Part shown: positions 10,897 through 51,910 of the stretch, piece after piece | Layout: the number at the start of each line of letters is the position of its first letter | Numbering within the stretch: the first letter of the stretch is position 1 | Assembly (NCBI GenBank): GCA_015499985.1 | Contig: JAAAUF010000137.1 | Coordinates: 1-59,382 of the forward strand | Length of the DNA: 59,382 nt | DNA from: Haplosporangium gracile | Taxonomy: Eukaryota > Mortierellomycota > Mortierellomycetes > Mortierellales > Mortierellaceae | Direction of reading: 5' to 3' | The notes under the pieces: model-generated | What the model was told of the DNA's origin: nothing | Database searches by the model: none | The model's input: only the letters and a program-made list of their open reading frames with translations | Position numbers and translations under genes: made by a program

Positions 10897-11763
10897 TTAT
10901 CTTTGCATGGAGTTACGGATAACATATCGGGCAACTGCTCGGGCCTTTCGGTCGTTGCTTTCAAGCCACTCCTCCACCGTGGTCGCCAAGCTCTCTGGTT
11001 CAAGCCTGGCCTTGAACAAACTATGTTCATCGGAATCGACTGAGGAACTTCGTTCTCGCGGCGTGAACACAGTTTCTCTCATGGCCAACTTTTCGCTTAC
11101 CGCCTTCCTTATCTCCTCTGCCAGATCCTGTGCATCCTTCTAGTTCTTTTCAAAGGTAAAGTTGAACTCTTCTCCGTCCAAAGCTGATGCGATGAAACGA
11201 AGAAAATGTCGCTTTGTTTGTTCTTCGGCTGCCTCTGACTCTTGTGGATATATGGGTCGTCGCTCCTGCACATCTGCCGATCTCTCCTCGAGGCTGTCTG
11301 CCATCGTTTTGGGAAGAACCTTGGTGGTGCGAAAACACTGTCGTGGCGTCGAAGCCTTCACTTGGGACCATGCATATGGGATCAAACTCCACGCCTGGCC
11401 GTTGGTGACTTTCTTTCCATGAGCACACTTGTTGGCAATCGCCTGGTGGGTAAGCATCTCGACGCAGTATCGCTTGAATACACTGATAACGCCAGCATCC
11501 AACGGTTGGGTGACAGATATCGAGTTTGCTGGAAGACGCACAAGGCGAAGGTGCGTCCACTGCTGCCCTGGCAACGGGTCGATATTGTCAAAGCCGTTAT
11601 GTGTTCCGCAGGAGTCGAAGAGAAGAACACTTGGCGTAGAGAGACTGGTGTCGAGAGAGTGGAGCCACGACTCAATGAGAGGCTGGGTCATGTATCCCTT
11701 CCTGAAGAGGGGGGTGCGCCACCTCTGGACAAAACCGTCATGACATTGCTTCCGCCAATCCAA
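10897..11763 (-). pseudogene. pogo/Tigger-type DDE transposase, C-terminal fragment with internal stop
   Basis: The 11763-11140 frame encodes the second half of a DDE_1-family transposase. LLFDSCGTHN carries the second catalytic acidic residue, and LPANSISVTQPLDAGVISVF carries the third, in the usual 'T..LQP.D.G....K' setting. An in-frame TAG at 11140-11142 interrupts it. Reading through, the same frame stays open for 17 codons and then continues to 10897 as an acidic helical tail (KDAQDLAEEIRKAV, then SVDSDEHSLF and VEEWLESNDRKARAVARYV). The N-terminal DNA-binding part and first catalytic Asp are absent: the sequence upstream of about 11760 belongs to a Ty3/gypsy element on the opposite strand. 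It is therefore truncated and carries a nonsense mutation. These enzymes cut and paste Tc1/mariner-superfamily elements; this copy cannot be functional. Confidence 0.8.
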
Positions 11764-13275
11764 TTTTTAAATAATCTTCAAGACCTGCCCCTGCTATCCG
11801 AGAAACAAACAATTCAAAATCGAATCTGCGCCCTGCTCCCAGATGACCCCATCTTTGGCCCCATCCTAACTAAGCCCTTGAACGATCAAGACTCTGACAA
11901 CCCCTACTTAGTACAAGGTGGCCTTCTACTTCATGAGGGTCTTGTCTGTGTGCCCGACGACCCCGACCTCAAAAGGATGATCCTTGAAGAATGTCATGAC
12001 TCCCCTATGGCCGGTCACTTTGGAATTACCAAGACTTTCGACCTTGTCTCGCGTATCTTCACCTGGTCCAGCATGCGCAAGTACATCAAGGACTACGTTG
12101 GGGGATGCGACATTGGCCAACTTAGCAAGTCAAGCAATCACAAGCCCTACGATCTTCTACAGCCATTACCCATTGCGGAACGACCCTGGGCCTCTATCTC
12201 TGTCGATTTTACTACTCGGCTCCCTGATTCCAGTGGCTACACCAACATATGCGTCTTTGTCGATCGATTCACCAAGATGGCCCACTTTGCACCCACCACA
12301 GATGACATTGATGCTGAAGACGCCGTTCAGTTGTTTTTAGAAAGAGTCTTCTCGACACATGGTCTCCCAGATAATGTTGTGTCTGACCGAGGAATCACCT
12401 TTACTTCCAAGTTCACCCGGTCCATCTCCAAGGCCCTCCATATTGAACAAAGCCTCTCTACGTCTTTTCACCCTCGCACCGACGGACAGACAGAACGAGT
12501 CAACTCAGTCCTGGAACAATACCTTCGCTGCTATATCGATTATCAACAATCCAACTGGAGCACTCTCTTGCCTATTGCGGAGTTTGCCTACAACAATACC
12601 ATTCACGCTTCAACAAAAACAACGCCCTTCTTTGCTAACTTTGGATATCATCCCAAATTTACCGTTACGATCCCACGGGTAACAAAGGATAATGTCCCCG
12701 TTTCTGATCGCATTAAGGCGTTCAATGACCTTTATTCGGAAATGCGATTTAATATTCAGTCCGCTGTTGAATCCCACACCCGTCATTTCGATACCAAGGC
12801 CATGGCCCAGCCCGAGTTCATGATTGATGACAAGGTCTGGCTTGACTCTCGTAACCTCCGTACCACTCGCCCTGCTCGAAAATTAGACTACAAGCGACAA
12901 GGCCCCTTCACCATCCTTGAAAAGGTCGGCAGTCGATCCTACCGTCTGGACCTTCCCAAAACCATGAAAATCCATTCTGTGTTCCATGTCAGTCTACTTG
13001 AACGCCTCCGTTCTGATTCCATCCCCGGTCGTGCTCCAAAGCCCCTGCCACCACTGATTGTCGCTGGCGAAGAAAAGTATGAGGTAGAGTCAGTCCTCGA
13101 CTCTAGAGTACAACGCGGTAGTCTACAGTACCACATCCACTGGAAGGGATATCCTATCTCGGAGCGATCATGGGTCCCAGCCGCCTCGGTTGCCAACTCC
13201 CCCAAGTTGGTATTTCAGTTCCACAAACGACATCCCAACAAACCTAGTCCTTTGCTTCGCGAAGCTCAACCCTAG
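11242..13275 (+). pseudogene. Ty3/gypsy integrase with C-terminal chromodomain, 5'-truncated
   Basis: The open frame is 677 codons, but only the part from about 11750 is element-derived; the first roughly 170 codons are simply antisense to the transposase fragment. From there it reads pol linker, H2C2 zinc-binding segment (HDSPMAGHFG ... GGCDIGQLSK), integrase catalytic core and chromodomain. The core carries SVDFTTRLP, VSDRGITFTSKF and DGQTERVNSVLEQYL, supplying D, D and E. It ends in a chromodomain with YEVESVLDSR and HWKGYPISERSWVP. This marks the chromovirus branch, whose chromodomain steers integration to modified chromatin. Gag, protease, reverse transcriptase and RNase H are missing. 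The second Cys of the zinc module is Gly (CDIG instead of CxxC), so this copy is defective even in its remaining part. Confidence 0.85.
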
Positions 13276-34359: not shown

Positions 34360-35464
34360 ATGGCTTTCTTGAATGATCATTGTTCTTCATTCAAGATCCT
34401 TCTCGTGCCGGCGATCGCGGCACAACATGCTATGCTCTACGGTCTTGATGACTACGAGCTCGATCAGGACGACGAAGATGAGAATCCAATTTTTCACCGT
34501 CTGTTTCTGCTAGATGCCTCAATTAACGTATACCAATATTCCGACGAGTACTGTGTACAAGAATTGCGGTTCACCTGTGTCCAGTTGGAGGGAATCCTTG
34601 AGGTTCAAAAGCCGTGATAGGGACAACGTCGATTCGCTTACGGTACTTTGCATGACCATATACCGTTTGTCTTACCCAGCCCAGTTTAACAGGATGGAGA
34701 CAATATTCCGCAGGAGTGCCAGCGCCATTTCCCGACTCATCAACCATCTTATCAAGTGGATCATGGTACGTTGGAACCAGCTGTTGATTTGGGACCACCA
34801 TCGATTGACACCAGATAAGCTTGAAGAGTATGCCGAGCTGTGCTATGAGAGGAGCAACCATGAGTGTAATACGGTATTCGGGTTCATTGATGGCACCGTA
34901 CGTAGGATCAATCGACCAACAGTCAATCAAGCCTCCATGCACAACGGACACAAGCTTGTACATGCTCTCAAGTATCAGAATATCGTTGGTCCAGATGGCA
35001 TCATTCTACATCCCAGCAAGACATACACCGGCACCATTCACGACGCCACTATATATCAGGAATCTGGCATCATGGATATCTTGGCGCTGCACGCTTTCGA
35101 TACAACTGGCCGGCCCCTTGCTCTTCATGGAGATTCCGCCTACATGAAGGACCCACACATGATCATTAGATACATAGGCACAAACCTCGCTCTGGAGGAA
35201 GAGACGTTCAATCAGACGATATCGGGCTTGCACGTTGTTGTTGAATGGACATTTGCGGAGGTTACTAGATGTTTCTCAGGCATTGACTTTCCCAAGAGTC
35301 ATCGCTAATTGTCCACTTGTATTGACTCCCATTATCGCTTTGCTATTTTGTTAACAAATATTCACATTTGTTACTATGGTGTTAAGATAAATGAGCGGTT
35401 TGGTAATAATCCTCCTACACTGCGAGAGTACATCCATCTAGCTATTATGGAACAAGTGTTATAA
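34360..35464 (+). pseudogene. PIF/Harbinger-type DDE transposase with frameshift and premature stop
   Basis: The N-terminal frame begins at an ATG near 34360 (MAFLNDHCSS) and includes FHRLFLLDASINVY. It ends in a stop at 34615-34617. The main domain continues in the next frame (DRDNVDSLTVLCMTIYRLSY), so a frameshift or tiny unseen intron lies near 34600. The catalytic triad is visible as FGFIDGTVRRINRP, LHGDSAYM and VVVEWTFAEV, in Harbinger (DDE_Tnp_4) order. A TAA at 35306-35308 cuts the frame at FPKSHR, but the same frame remains open and family-like afterwards (ILLTNIHICYYG, PPTLREYIHLA) to 35464. Harbinger transposases work with a Myb/SANT-like partner; one lies convergently just to the right. 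The element is recent enough to read easily but is broken. Confidence 0.8.
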
Positions 35465-46142: not shown

Positions 46143-48007
46143 TGGAGCTGTCTGTCGTTGGGGTGGCGTTGGTGCAGAGGTTGGTCGAACGGGTGATCGA
46201 TATCGTTCAGAGGATTGTTGATTCCTTGAACTTCAGTTGTAGTGTTTTTAGCTGAAGAGGAGATGGACTCGGTATGGTCGTGGAGGAGGTCGAGTTTGTG
46301 AAGGGCAAGGGATTGGGGGGACTTTTGTTGAAGTAAGAAAAAGGGGAGGAGACGAGGGAGATAAAAGTGAGGGACTTGGTCGGCGAGGGTGACGGTGGAG
46401 GGGAGGAGGAAGCGAGGGTAGGCTGGGCGGGAGATTGGTTTGGGGAGGGGGACGGGGTTGGACTGCAGGAGCGAGACGGAGGTGAGGCCTGCGGAACGAG
46501 TAGCGAAGGACTGAAGGGACGGAATGGTGGGAAGCAGAGAAAGAAGAGGAGTGGAGGAGGTGGAGGATTGGCGGATTGGAGGATCGGAGAGTAGAAGATG
46601 GGTATGCAGAGGATTGATAAAGAAAGAAGGAAGAAAGTGGGCGTAGTAGTGAGAACGATTTCTTTAATTGACTATGAGGTTGAGAGTCGGAGAGAGTGGG
46701 AGTGGAGGTAGTGTTGGTTTTGCTGTTTGGTTGTGGGTTGTGGGTTTTGGTAATTGACAATAATATTCCCCTTCCCTTTTTATATGATTTCGAGAGAAAA
46801 AAAGTGGGCGTAAAAACCCCGCTCCGAAGTGGCCATTACAGCGCTAAGATGTTCACTCTCGCCCATTACTTGAATCAGTGCTATCTTTGTCATGACCCTC
46901 CCTCCTTGGGCATCGCCATTCCCTTTCCAGGTACACCGGTGTTTCATTACCTTCTCTGATTTCACTCACCCCATTATCCTATATCCAATACCATCATTCC
47001 CACACAAGCACATTTTTCATATGTATTCATTTTATCCTCGTACGACTTTACTCCAAAACCTTACAACTAACTAACAGCAAGCATCTATCCCCCACGTACA
47101 AAACAAAAACAAGAACAACACATGCATTCATTGTCCCTCCACTCTCCCAAGAATAGATCGTTCACACCTCGCCCTGCTTTGCCTCCGAGAGTTTCTCCAA
47201 AAAAAACATGGCTCGAAAAAAAGAGAAACTATCAGTCAAACCGCGCGAGTTTTTGATGCAAAGAACGCAAAGAACAATTGAGTTGAGGTCATGTTTCTTT
47301 ATCTTGGCTATGCTGGTTCCTCTTGACTATCCTTACAGAGAAGCATCTATTCGGATCAAATGGATTCTCTAGAGACACAGAAACACTGTTAGTCAAGACG
47401 AAATGAAAAAAGGTAAACATGCCAAAATAACACTCATTTCCGTCCAAACAAACGCGAACAGACGAATCAGGACATAATTGACCTTTCTGGCCTTGCCTCC
47501 TTCATTTCACTCGTTATCTTTCCTCCCTTTCCCCCCATTCTTTTCTGTGTGTGTGAGTTTGTACCTCAAAAATCGTTGTCAAAAAATAGCTAGTCCTTGT
47601 TCCTCGTTCCCCATTCTAGAACAGGCCTTTGGCTTTAACTTAAGGTAACTGTTTGACGCCCCCCGAGTTTTGCGCCAAAATAATCAACAAGGCCTTAGCA
47701 ATCCTTGTCCAGAAAAAAAAATTGGAGATTTAAAAACATTGGCCCGGCCCTTCTTCGTAAAAGAAAGAAAAGGACTAAAGTCTTTTGCCCAAAAGAAGTT
47801 CGCCCGAAGATCCAAAAACTGAAATGATAATAAAGAAAAAAAATGAAAGAAATAACCGCTGTTGTTGAGAGCAATGACCGAGATAAAAGAGAATGAGCTT
47901 TTGGAGGGAGAACAGTAGACAAAGAAGACACACGGGTGCCGATGTGAACAGAGCCCACATTGGAACAAGAATAACTCTTTGTAATTGAACAAAAAAAAAA
48001 AAAAAAA

Positions 48008-48016
48008 NNNNNNNNN
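48008..48016. other. Run of nine Ns (assembly gap)
   Basis: Nine undetermined bases directly follow a poly-A run of 17 bases and precede further A-rich sequence, so this is probably an unresolved homopolymer. Any frame crossing it is unreliable. Confidence 0.99.
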
Positions 48017-48023
48017 AAAGGCG

Positions 48024-48080
48024 CTTCCTCCTTCCCTCACACTGCTTCCCTCCTTCCCTCACACTGCTTCCCTCCTTCCA
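48024..48080. repeat. 22-bp tandem repeat beside the gap
   Basis: The unit cctccttccctcacactgct recurs twice, followed by a partial third copy, immediately right of the N run. It is pyrimidine-rich and may have contributed to the assembly break. Confidence 0.8.
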
Positions 48081-48618
48081 ACCCACTTCGGAGCAGCAAA
48101 AAACAAAGGGTTTCACATCGCAATCGGGAAACGCCGACTGACCATTTGAATAAACAGAGGGCTCACGACAAAAATAACTTTCACGGCATTTCCATAATTG
48201 ACAACGGATCAATCAAATCTCACAAATACAGTCCTATCAGGTGGGCTGAAATAAGCGTGGTAGATGGTTTTTATTCTTTTCAAAGACACGGAAACAACAA
48301 GAGAACGGCGTAGCAAAAGCGAGGGTCACAAGCGCAAGAGCTATACGCACGCATCCAAATGAGAAAGGGGAACATATAAAAAAGAAAGAAAGAGAAAGAA
48401 AGAGAAAATAGATGGTCGTATTGCGCTTTTCAGATAAGAATGTACAATGAACAAATAAAATCGACGTTAGTTTGGGAATAAAATAGAACGGCTTGTTTGC
48501 TGCACCATAAGGATATATCAGTTGGAACTCACCAATAGCTCGTTACAGACGAGGTTCTTCAGGACATCGTGAACTGATGCCTTCAGATTAGCTGTTGGAT
48601 CCAGTAGAGTCACTGGTG

Positions 48619-50380
48619 CTAGGTGTTGGTTTCGCGATCTTTGGTCGATGTCTAGACTCGAAGGGGGGGAAGTGTCCTCCGTTCGCCAGACTTCAGCGTT
48701 TCGCGAGAGGTCAAGCGAGAGTAACCTGCGATAGCGATGGCGACCGCGGCGTTGTCGTCACGCCCTCTGATAGTGTGGCCGCTCTAAACAACCTCGCAGT
48801 CTCGACTCACGCACTCCACAGCACCATGGATCCATACCGTCCTGATGCTTCCTTTGATCATCTTTCTTGCACGAGCAAGCCTCAGCTGGTTGTAGCAGAA
48901 AATGCAGATCTGACTGGTCCGCATTTCGTCCGTCATGAGGACAGGCATGATTGCCTGTGCTGCTCTGTGATCCGACCATCGCCCAGGTTGAACATCTTCG
49001 AGAGTCCGAACATGTTGCAAAGTGTTGTTGAACAACTCTTTGTAGATGGTACGAACGTCTTGGTTCTGGCTCTTCCTGAGTCGTTTCTCTCTTTTCTTAG
49101 TGGTAGATCGACCAAAAGTTACCTCATGGACCTGCTTTGAGGATATAGTATACGCCTTGGGCTTCTTGATTTTATGCAGATCATGCGAAGCTGGTGAAGG
49201 TATTTTGGCGTCTCGTCCGAAGTAATATCAGCCTGGGAGCTCTCGTTACCGTCGTTAGTTTCGTCGTCATAATCGAGAATAGTTTTCTAGTCGTCTACAG
49301 TAAGGCAAAAAAAGTGAGCGGAGTAAATCGTTAGAAGGAAAGAGTAATTAACACAAGCTGACTATGTCAATTAATCTGCATTCCTGCAAAGGCATCTCTA
49401 CAAAAGAACTTTATCCTACTTACCGAACAAAGCAGAATACCGATTGATATGCGCATAGAGGTCTTGTCTACTCTGGGGTACCGTAAGGTGCATCATGTTG
49501 AGACCCCTATCCGTTCCTGCATATCCCTCCAGATGTCTTGAGTCTGTCGCAGAGCTGAGAAGATCCTTGATGCAAGTTGCCTCTACATAGTCCTGGGTCG
49601 CGGGACGCTGGAGAATGGGTCTGCTGGTTATCATCTCTTCTGGAGGAGGAGAGGGGGTCTTGGTTGGGGGCGTTTCGGTTAGTTTGTTCCAGTAGTACAG
49701 GGATCGTCGGGCCAATCTCAGGTCTCTCTCTTTGGGGTCGAGAGCTTGGCGGGAGTCATCAACCTTTTATCGAAGGCCTTTGACAACTGCATACGTACTT
49801 CTGGTGTCCTTGTTGTTGCGCTTTCGAGGGCTTACGAGTGCTGCCGAGCGTTGTATCTCCAGCTCACTCACGGTGTTCTTGAATCATTGTCATCATTGAA
49901 CTGGTACTTCAAAATACCAGATACATACCAGGTATGTATGAAAACTATATACCCTTGTTCAGGCTTGAATGTGTCCTTGGTAGCTTTAACTGGTTTCCTC
50001 TTGTTCGCTCGATACTTTGCGATATGGTAGACCGGCTCCGGTGTCGAGTGTGTAAGGCAGTCTGGCTGAGATGTTTCCTGGGGAATGGGTCCGACCTGGC
50101 TTGATGATGAAGGCCAGTCCAGCTCAGAAAATGGAGCAGCGGCTTGACAAGGGGAGGAAGGGCGAGCCTCACCAGAGGATGACGATTCGTTTCGTTGAGA
50201 TGATAGGGCTACGGCCTGATCAGAGGATGGAGGTACAGCCTTGAGCGCGACAAACTGCCCTAGGCCCTCCAAAGAACTCTTTACATGCAAAAAGACGATC
50301 GTTGTGGTGTAAGGGTTGGCCTCGTCCGGGTTGTCATAGATCTTTATTCTCTTCCTTGTGGAGAAAACTAACAATCAAAT
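48619..50380 (-). pseudogene. Fanzor (eukaryotic TnpB-like RNA-guided nuclease) relic
   Basis: On the minus strand, pieces in family order but several frames can be read. A probable N-terminal piece sits at about 50370-50280 (RKRIKIYDNPDEANPYTTT). A RuvC-I-like segment at 49715-49416 reads HLEGYAGTDRGLNMM, the candidate catalytic Asp being near 49510. A basic helical segment follows at about 49240-49000 (KAYTISSKQVHEVTFGRSTT, KKREKRLRKS). A zinc ribbon comes next (TDEMRTSQICIFCYN ... GAVECVSRDC, CxxC plus Cx4C). After a TAG at 48784-48786 the same frame gives GHTIRGRDDNAAVAIAIAGY, the RuvC-III box, ending at 48619. Only about 25 residues lie where the RuvC-II Glu region should be. Frameshifts, stops and this deletion make it inactive. 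Living relatives are transposon-encoded RNA-guided DNA nucleases. Confidence 0.68.
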
Positions 50381-50688
50381 GTTTAGCTGCTCCGAAATGC
50401 GAAATGCGACGAAGAACAAAGTGGCTCTTGCGGGGAACATCGATTTTTTGAGAGAGCGTAGTGATCGTGGCTGTGTCGCTCGTTGTGATAAAAGATGGGA
50501 GGAGGGGCGTGGGTTCGATCACTGCGGGGTGCCTCGTGGAAATTACGGCGGACTTGCTGTAAGGTTGAACTAAAGTTTGCTTGCTGATTTCTCGTAGAGG
50601 GGGGGGGGAGGGGGCGTGCTGGAGTATTTGGTGGGGTCTGCTGCAGTAGTTGGAGTCGTCGTAGGTGCAGTGAGAAGATGGTCTTGGA

Positions 50689-51048
50689 TCAAGTCGGGTA
50701 TGTTGATGCAAAAATTGTAATGGGATCCTTCTGTGCGCCAGTGAGATAGCTAATGATATACCCAGCCAACTGTGAGGTCGACGAGTCTCCTTTGTTGACT
50801 ACGAGGTTGATTCCACGGAGGAAGCGAAGTGCCGCGTCATAGTCCTCGTTGGCTATAGGTTTATCCTGTCCGCACCGCCCCTCTGCATCCACGAGGCAGC
50901 AATAGAGGTCATCCTGATCCTGATCCTCGCCTCTGCGCGGTAATCTCGGGATCTTGACAGTGAAGGATTGGTTTTGGTCAAGAGTCAGTAAACCGCCAAC
51001 CAAAAACGAAATCGAAAACGAAGCAATGGTTTCTTCTCGTCTTGACAT
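50689..51048 (-). CDS. Small ORF of unknown function upstream of the Fanzor relic
   Basis: From the ATG at 51048 this gives 119 residues (MSRREETIASFSISFLVGG ... ITIFASTYPT). Composition is ordinary and partly acidic: GEDQDQDDLYCCLVDAEGRC, DKPIANEDYDAALRFLRGIN and SQLAGYIISYLTGAQKDP. No family is recognised. It lies on the same strand as the Fanzor relic and ends about 310 bp before the relic's probable N-terminal piece. It may be a separate gene, an N-terminal exon, or part of the mobile element. Another frame stays open past its stop (IPDLIQDHLLTAPTTTPTTA), so a frameshift near 50720 is possible. The longer upstream extension is low-complexity and was not used. Confidence 0.4.
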   Translation of the reverse strand: MSRREETIASFSISFLVGGLLTLDQNQSFTVKIPRLPRRGEDQDQDDLYCCLVDAEGRCGQDKPIANEDYDAALRFLRGINLVVNKGDSSTSQLAGYIISYLTGAQKDPITIFASTYPT

Positions 51049-51910
51049 ACAGCAAAAAAACTGTACCCCTAGGCAGCTGGCGGTCATGTAGCACAATGTT
51101 CGGCAGAGTGTGTGAGGAGTTTTTGTGTGGTATGTATTGGTTGTTGAAGGAAGATAGGCGTGACTAGGACAGTACGAAACAATGAGAAAATGGCTATGGG
51201 AGGGGAGAAAAGGAAAAAAAAGGAAGAAGGGAAACAATAGGGGAGGATAACCATCATTCTAATGGCGTGTCTTTCTTAATAGCAGGAACACCACTCAGAA
51301 GAAATTATCCGAATTATATGCTTGCACGCGTAATTTTATTTGAAATCTGTAATAAAAATAGAAAAAAAAAACAACAAAAAAAAAAAATGGGACACAAGGA
51401 GAAACTGCATCACACTCGAAAAGGGTGTGTGCATCAATACAACTGTGCTGTTGTGGTGAAGCGACTTTTTTTTTTTTTTTGATATTTTCGTATTTTTCTC
51501 ATTTTTTTGAAGGGTAAGGATAGGAAGGGCATCAGAACACATATAGGTGTTAGCGTCTCTAGTTGGTGTTTTTTTGTAGCATAAAAAAAAGTATGGAAAT
51601 CCTGTTCCGAGGAGGTAGAGGGGAGTGTCGGTTGGTTGGTCAGTCAGTCAGGGTTGTCGCTTTGCCACTTGCTTAGCGCCGTCTCTCCAGTCGATTGTAG
51701 ATCCATATTGCTTCCCATTCTAAACATGACTCGGAACTCCACTGTGCTGGTTTGTTGTTTGTTGTTTTTGGTGGTGGATGGTGGAATGGTTGAAGGGTCT
51801 CACGGGGGGTGTAGCGTCTGTCATTCGTCACCTGAAATAATAACAGGCGCGAGTAGTTGTTGTCGGATAAAATTTGCTCACACTTGCAGCCGAGCAATGC
51901 TCCTCCTCTT
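51049..51910. other. Intergenic, no gene seen
   Basis: This AT-rich segment has poly-A and poly-T runs (for example near 51360 and 51465). It should include the 3' UTR of the EST1/SMG7-like gene and the promoter of the small ORF. Confidence 0.4.

What the first reader, a model, noticed from the sequence alone, without database searches (positions are those of the whole stretch)
48619..50380. Broken Fanzor (eukaryotic TnpB) copy
The minus strand carries in family order a RuvC-I-like GTDRGL segment, a basic helical segment (KKREKRLRKS), a CxxC/Cx4C zinc ribbon and a RuvC-III-like RDDNAAVAIAIAG box. These are hallmarks of Fanzor/TnpB RNA-guided nucleases. The RuvC-II region is missing and there are frameshifts and a TAG at 48784-48786, so the copy is dead. 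A relic implies active relatives in this genome.
Basis: partly seen in the sequence, partly recalled or inferred. Interest (0 to 1): 0.85.

Follow-up and report, generated by a model that had tools for sequence, protein, structure and literature searches.

The report
Dead Fanzor1 copy in Mortierellaceae fungus
This is the decayed remains of a Fanzor gene, the eukaryotic kind of RNA-guided DNA-cutting enzyme carried by mobile DNA, from a little-noticed branch of that family in Mortierella-type soil fungi; it looks like a new but ordinary member of a known kind.

Summary
The minus strand carries, in family order, a RuvC-I segment (TDRGL, 49500-49514), a basic segment, a C4 zinc ribbon and RuvC-III (RDDNAA), broken by frameshifts and a TAG. 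A profile of ten C-terminal pieces of the family matches only two PDB sequences, both Fanzor1 (SpuFz1 E=3.5e-4; PpFz1 E=0.062). An annotated 1148-aa Linnemannia elongata relative has DPG plus the alternative glutamate and aligns with both window segments. Corrections: the alternative RuvC-II glutamate is present (48925-48927); lost is the strand before it, about 545 bp missing at 48991/48992 relative to two sister copies; the remnant spans about 51309-48411. Family pieces lie on 22 contigs; of the 13 I read, none is uninterrupted and full length, so active relatives of this family are not shown, though a separate PF07282 family has 35 matches, 22 without stops inside the match. A 3' noncoding motif recurs at two protein-less loci, but no test supports an omega RNA and it may be an intron. 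None of the 9 pieces and 8 proteins scanned reaches Pfam's PF07282 cut-off.

The parts
48411..51309 (-). whole recognisable remnant of the Fanzor element (outer limits of DNA homology to the copies on C858 and C688; true ends not proven)
   Evidence: blastn
50728..51021 (-). N-terminal coding segment shared with C858 (79% identical protein)
   Evidence: DNA 51309-50735 is 77% identical to C858
49419..49766 (-). RuvC-I segment (P0002); helix-rich stretch followed by the GTDRGL box
49500..49514 (-). RuvC-I box TDRGL, catalytic-type Asp at 49509-49511
   Evidence: sequence; aligned with DDPGL of P0011
48992..49227 (-). basic segment between RuvC-I and RuvC-II (KKREKRLRKS at 49069-49098)
48991..48992 (.). 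deletion junction: about 545 bp present in C688 (547) and C858 (544), including the strand before the RuvC-II glutamate, is missing here
   Evidence: blastn coordinates; sequences
48925..48927 (-). alternative RuvC-II glutamate (DEMRTSQIC), six residues before the first Cys
   Evidence: Glu column conserved in 9 of 10 rows of alignment A4
48796..48906 (-). C4 zinc ribbon CIFC ... CVSRDC (Cys codons 48904-48906, 48895-48897, 48811-48813, 48796-48798)
48784..48786 (-). in-frame TAG between ribbon and RuvC-III
48724..48762 (-). RuvC-III box RDDNAAVAIAIAG
   Evidence: aligned with GRDANAANN of P0011 by tblastn (48945-48658, E=8e-12)
48533..48574 (-). open reading stretch VHDVLKNLVCNELL in another frame, conserved in C688 and C858, ending at a GTGAGT
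   Evidence: ORF 48518-48757; DNA alignment; frame read by eye
48421..48532 (-). conserved 3' noncoding block; first 33 bp (48500-48532) recur at five places in the genome, two without Fanzor protein

Best explanation
It is a pseudogene of a Fanzor1-type RNA-guided endonuclease, belonging to a divergent sub-family seen so far only in Mortierellaceae proteins. Shown here: the RuvC-I, alternative RuvC-II glutamate, zinc ribbon and RuvC-III pieces are homologous to an annotated 1148-aa relative and to solved Fanzor1 proteins, and the copy is broken by a deletion of about 545 bp, frameshifts and a stop. Inferred: when alive, the protein used a guide RNA transcribed from the element (in known Fanzors from the 3' end) to bind and cut matching DNA with its RuvC site, which would help the element that carries it to persist or spread; dispersal as a mobile element is inferred from copies with unrelated flanks. 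Today the locus makes no working enzyme.
For: P0001 and P0002 match other copies in the genome and DNA of C688/C858 at 77-85%. Profile of ten C-terminal pieces against the PDB: two sequences at E<=10, SpuFz1 3.5e-4 and PpFz1 0.062; an earlier nine-piece profile gave SpuFz1 alone, 0.006. Profile comparison with the PF07282 family of the same genome: probability 87%, E=4e-6, 0 of 50 column shuffles as good, reversed profile score 12.3 against 37.5. tblastn of P0011 hits window 49733-49422 (E=0.002) and 48945-48658 (E=8e-12); P0005 and P0011 also find the window in the whole-genome search (E=2.2e-6, 9.2e-11). Four of four Linnemannia proteins that span RuvC-I read DDPG (P0011-P0014) and P0011 has NENRTSRIC...C4...GRDANAANN. 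Motif pattern: 1 in window, 0 of 200 random windows.
Against: RuvC-I reads TDRG, not the DPG that PMC10711439 calls near exclusive in Fanzors, in 4 of 4 rows of A2. The window alone is not recognised: PF07282 12.1 bits against a cut-off of 26.3, and no Fanzor in the PDB for the single piece or for P0005 or P0011 alone. The first hhalign was weak (probability 11.8%) because four of ten rows were cut in wrong frames. AlphaFold2 of P0011 failed (mean pLDDT 41.7), so the fold is untested. In P0011 the spacing RuvC-I Asp to TS is 316 residues, beyond the 125-275 given in PMC3627910.
Confidence: 0.93

Rival explanations
1. An unrelated zinc-ribbon protein relic whose motifs resemble Fanzor by chance.
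For: Single sequences reach neither PF07282's cut-off nor Fanzor chains in the PDB; top single-sequence hits are weak and scattered.
Against: The two profiles match only Fanzor1 chains; conserved columns of A4 are the Glu, Ser and four Cys of the Fanzor layout; RuvC-I aligns with a DPG box.
Confidence: 0.03
2. A domesticated, nuclease-dead Fanzor-derived gene still expressed in pieces (by analogy with nuclease-dead TnpB-derived repressors; recalled, not looked up).
For: Several open stretches of 112-189 codons remain; second codon positions differ slightly less than first and third between copies (61, 42, 67 differences by position over four comparisons).
Against: The deletion, in-frame TAG and small indels between copies; the codon signal is weak and absent in the basic segment (11, 11, 6).
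Confidence: 0.03
3. A classical Fanzor1 (PF07282-type family, as in the 35 matches elsewhere in this genome) rather than a separate branch.
For: Both have the alternative Glu, TS, C4 ribbon and RD box.
Against: None of the 35 PF07282 places coincides with a place of this family; the two families are related only at profile level.
Confidence: 0.04

Closest known systems
Fanzor1 SpuFz1 (Spizellomyces punctatus; PDB 8gkh, 9ceu and others)
   Same: alternative Glu followed by TS, C4 ribbon with a CxNPxC second half, RD box; best PDB match of the family profile
   Different: very low sequence identity; the window copy is dead; no inverted repeats or omega RNA shown here; RuvC-I TDRG in this copy
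Fanzor1 PpFz1 (Parasitella parasitica; PDB 9cf0)
   Same: second match of the profile (E=0.062), same motif order
   Different: match is weak; whether the long stretch between RuvC-I and RuvC-II here is like the PpFz1 RuvC-insertion domain was not tested
Hypothetical proteins P0011-P0014 and P0005-P0008 (Linnemannia, Mortierella hygrophila) and P0010 (Haplosporangium gracile)
   Same: same family; P0011 aligns with both window segments; P0010 is a gene model of the C954 copy
   Different: annotated as hypothetical; P0011 reads DDPG where the window reads TDRG; several models (P0005, P0006, P0010) lack part of the RuvC set

Membership tests
Fanzor (Fanzor1) | RuvC-I catalytic aspartate | tested here: met
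   Asp of TDRGL aligns with the Asp of DDPGL in P0011; 4 of 4 rows of A2 keep it
Fanzor (Fanzor1) | DPG motif in RuvC-I (near exclusive in Fanzors, PMC10711439 section read) | tested here: inconclusive
   window and three sister copies read DRG; P0011-P0014 read DPG; C846 and C833 read DADGSGL and NDPSL
Fanzor (Fanzor1) | alternative RuvC-II glutamate six residues before the ribbon | tested here: met
   DEMRTSQIC at 48927; Glu in 9 of 10 rows of A4
Fanzor (Fanzor1) | C4 zinc ribbon between RuvC-II and RuvC-III, then RD box | tested here: met
   CIFC / CVSRDC / RDDNAA
Fanzor (Fanzor1) | motif D-X(125,275)-[TS][TS]-X-X-C4-X(5,50)-RD (PMC3627910, passage) | tested here: inconclusive
   TS-XX-C4 and 11 residues to RD met in the window; the first spacing cannot be measured here (deletion) and is 316 in P0011 (positions), outside the range
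Fanzor (Fanzor1) | sequence homology to characterised Fanzors | tested here: met
   profile hits SpuFz1 and PpFz1 only; single sequences do not
Fanzor (Fanzor1) | RuvC fold with D-E-D triad | tested here: inconclusive
   AlphaFold2 of P0011 with nine rows: mean pLDDT 41.7, unusable
Fanzor (Fanzor1) | omega RNA from the element's end and RNA-guided cleavage | not testable with these tools
   conserved 3' block found, but no structural support and no Rfam match
Pfam PF07282 (Cas12f1-like TNB) | score above the curated cut-off of 26.3 bits | tested here: not met
   window 12.1 bits; P0011 11.7 bits; none of 9 pieces in A1 and 8 proteins reaches it
Prokaryotic-type TnpB | canonical RuvC-II glutamate about 50 residues before the ribbon | tested here: not met
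   no conserved Glu in that part of A4; that part is deleted in the window

The most novel reading that the evidence does not exclude
These copies are a separate, Mortierellaceae-specific Fanzor1 branch missed by current profiles, with a long RuvC-I to RuvC-II insertion, and the 3' block that persists at two protein-less loci is the scaffold of its guide RNA (ghost loci as described for S. punctatus), possibly processed by splicing because it starts with a GTGAGT after an open frame and holds ACTAAC.
Probability: 0.15. Interest if true: 0.5.

Novelty: new member of a known kind. Interest (0 to 1): 0.3.

Why it matters
It shows that Fanzor-type genes can be present in many copies in a fungal genome and yet stay below the usual Pfam detection level, so counts of eukaryotic RNA-guided nucleases from PF07282 alone will be too low in this group. 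The full-length Linnemannia relatives are the useful objects; the window copy itself is a dead witness.

Tried and rejected
RuvC-II entirely missing: rejected, the alternative glutamate is present.

Direct family searches with single pieces (Pfam, NCBIfam, PDB): no significant match; only profiles worked.

First profile-profile run: discarded because I had cut 4 of 10 rows (C489, C616, C858, C954) in wrong frames; repeated with correct pieces. Both are reported.

Motif scan of 18 loci of the PF07282 set with my own regular expressions: the patterns were too strict and found nothing useful; replaced by printing the translations.

AlphaFold2 of P0011: mean pLDDT 41.7, so no fold search was made.

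Omega RNA in the 3' block: consensus fold of five sequences has 8 pairs and no compensatory change; z-scores +1.84, +0.23, -0.20 in three copies; no Rfam match up to E=1 in 48000-51600. Against a family-wide scaffold: the C567, C833 and C466 copies end in a different, much shorter stretch after their stop codons. For a wider signal: C954/C392 3' ends resemble that of C688 (score 25.5, 0 of 500 Markov shuffles as high, maximum 20.5).

Terminal repeats and target-site duplications: looked for by eye at the ends, none convincing. The segment 49868-50374 (P0003) has no second copy in the genome, so I do not claim it as Fanzor.

PDB search with a 451-aa stretch of the other family: one weak unrelated match (GrpE, E=0.0063), no Fanzor.

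Full report
What is there. The minus strand of 48619-50380 holds open pieces in several frames: 49416-49766 with GTDRGL, 48784-49227 with a basic stretch and a C4 zinc ribbon ended by TAG, and RGRDDNAAVAIAIAG in the same frame after it. A pattern of Glu, [TS]S, C4 ribbon and RD box, written after seeing the sequence, occurs once in the window and in 0 of 200 order-1 Markov windows.

Where it lies. The window is contig C227 of a 37.5-Mb assembly of 1157 contigs. A copy of this family on contig C954 is 99% identical, over 95% of the scored stretch, to a Haplosporangium gracile protein on a contig of 131,479 bases; C954 has 131,176. The source is therefore probably that species or a close one (Mortierellaceae); I did not test this with other genes.

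What single-sequence searches say. They do not recognise it: the best Fanzor-type match of the window piece is PF07282 at 12.1 bits, E=0.24, against a cut-off of 26.3; NCBIfam and PDB gave nothing relevant. None of nine pieces of the family nor of eight full or partial proteins, P0005, P0006, P0007, P0010 and P0011-P0014, reaches the cut-off; P0008 was not scanned.

Family in the genome. P0001 matches 14 places on 11 contigs including itself, P0002 five places on four contigs. With P0005 (39 matches) and P0011 (47 matches; 40 of 50 candidates scored) the union is 22 contigs at E<=0.001; two of them (C52, C709) match only the N-terminal half, weakly. I read 13 of the 22 (C227, C688, C858, C392, C954, C812, C489, C629, C466, C567, C616, C846, C833). 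Each of these is truncated, frameshifted or carries stops; none is uninterrupted and full length. C567 has two open segments (173 and 185 codons) but lacks the part before them. C109 matches most of P0011 but with stops; I did not read it.

Relatives. Two protein searches with open stretches found P0005-P0008 (Linnemannia gamsii, Mortierella hygrophila, Linnemannia elongata) and P0010 (H. gracile); a third with P0005 found P0011-P0014 (Linnemannia, where only the 7994 candidates sharing most words were scored). Those source names are Mortierellaceae genera; that the family is limited to them is only what these three word-based searches returned. P0011, 1148 aa, cluster of 15 sequences, carries GFDGDDPGL, NENRTSRIC, a C4 ribbon and GRDANAANN. 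It aligns with the window at 49733-49422 (E=0.002) and 48945-48658 (E=8e-12), and GFDGDDPGL lines up with GYAGTDRGL.

Link to Fanzor. A profile of nine genome pieces matched one PDB sequence at E<=10, SpuFz1 at 0.006. With P0011 and P0005 added and the rows trimmed (ten rows), it matched two, SpuFz1 at 3.5e-4 and PpFz1 at 0.062. Its most conserved columns are the Glu, the Ser, the four Cys, one Leu and one Gly. Against the zinc-ribbon exons of 18 of the 35 PF07282 places in the same genome, the profile comparison gave 87%, E=4e-6; 0 of 50 column shuffles reached the score of 37.5 (maximum 19.1) and the reversed profile scored 12.3. An earlier run with four rows in wrong frames gave 11.8%, E=0.0025. 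PMC10711439 (passages, one section read) names DPG plus an alternative glutamate six residues before the zinc finger as the fingerprint of Fanzors; the glutamate is met by the window, DPG by P0011-P0014 but not by the window. PMC3627910 (passages) gives the motif order; PMC11423790 (passages) describes SpuFz1, GtFz1 and PpFz1.

How it broke. Relative to C688 and C858, 547 and 544 bp are missing at 48991/48992, including the strand before the glutamate (compare C858). Differences by codon position between the window and its sister copies are 15, 12, 20 (RuvC-I, C688), 11, 11, 6 (basic segment, C858), 17, 6, 16 and 18, 13, 25 (ribbon and RuvC-III, C858 and C688); the basic segment against C688 gave 7, 2, 3 over 94 bp. 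This is at most a weak sign that part of the divergence happened under constraint. The remnant reaches up to 51309 by homology to C858, which itself lacks 50734-49365.

The 3' end. Downstream of RuvC-III a block is shared by C227, C688 and C858 and, in part, by C825 and C434, where I saw no family protein match (searches list neither contig). A flexible pattern of its first 33-35 bp has exactly five places in the genome and none when read backwards; the pattern was built from these five sequences. PMC10432273 (passages) describes ghost loci with the omega-RNA region but no protein in S. punctatus, which this resembles. But no structure is supported, no Rfam family matches, the block follows directly on a conserved open stretch (VHDVLKNLVCNELL in the window) with GTGAGT, and it contains ACTAAC, the form of a fungal branch point (recalled), so a terminal intron is as good a reading. 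The copies C567, C833 and C466 end differently.

Mechanism. Known Fanzors are RNA-guided endonucleases (PMC10432273, abstract passage). By homology the ancestor of this copy would have worked in the same way; nothing here tests guide RNA, target or cutting. The dispersed copies with unrelated flanks suggest mobility, but I found no terminal repeats, target-site duplications or transposase that I can assign to the element.

Literature. Full-text searches for Fanzor with Mortierella, Linnemannia and Mucoromycota, and TnpB with Mortierella, each returned 0 papers in the held open-access library; subscription papers and supplementary tables were not searched, so earlier listing of these proteins cannot be excluded.

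Verdict. New member of a known kind.

Noticed in passing
35 places elsewhere in the genome, e.g. C129:7665-7823, C718:38024-38182: A second, better-preserved Fanzor1-type family: 35 PF07282 matches, 32 over the cut-off, 22 without stops inside the match. In several of the 18 read, the stretch I take for RuvC-I reads LDGGQ or IDLGQ rather than DPG (by eye, not tested).
   Followed up: partly
L035 (C567) and L034 (C466): Two copies from different sub-lineages begin abruptly within about 27 bp of each other at the end of the RuvC-I exon, with introns kept and no shared terminal sequence; C812 also lacks everything upstream. Unexplained.
   Followed up: partly
C825:54984-55065 and C434:14667-14711 (L045, L046): Orphan copies of the 3' block without any family protein match.
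   Followed up: partly
window 49868-50374, minus strand: Open frame of 168 codons inside the remnant with no second copy in the genome; origin unknown.
   Followed up: partly
window 11239-13275 (+), 11140-11766 (-), 34514-35308 (+): Open frames that look like a Ty3-type integrase and two DDE-type transposases (labels recalled from reading, no search made).
   Followed up: no
P0010 (H. gracile BGZ47_010618), L028: Public gene model of the C954 copy, called hypothetical protein; it stops before the zinc-ribbon segment that lies downstream on the contig.
   Followed up: partly
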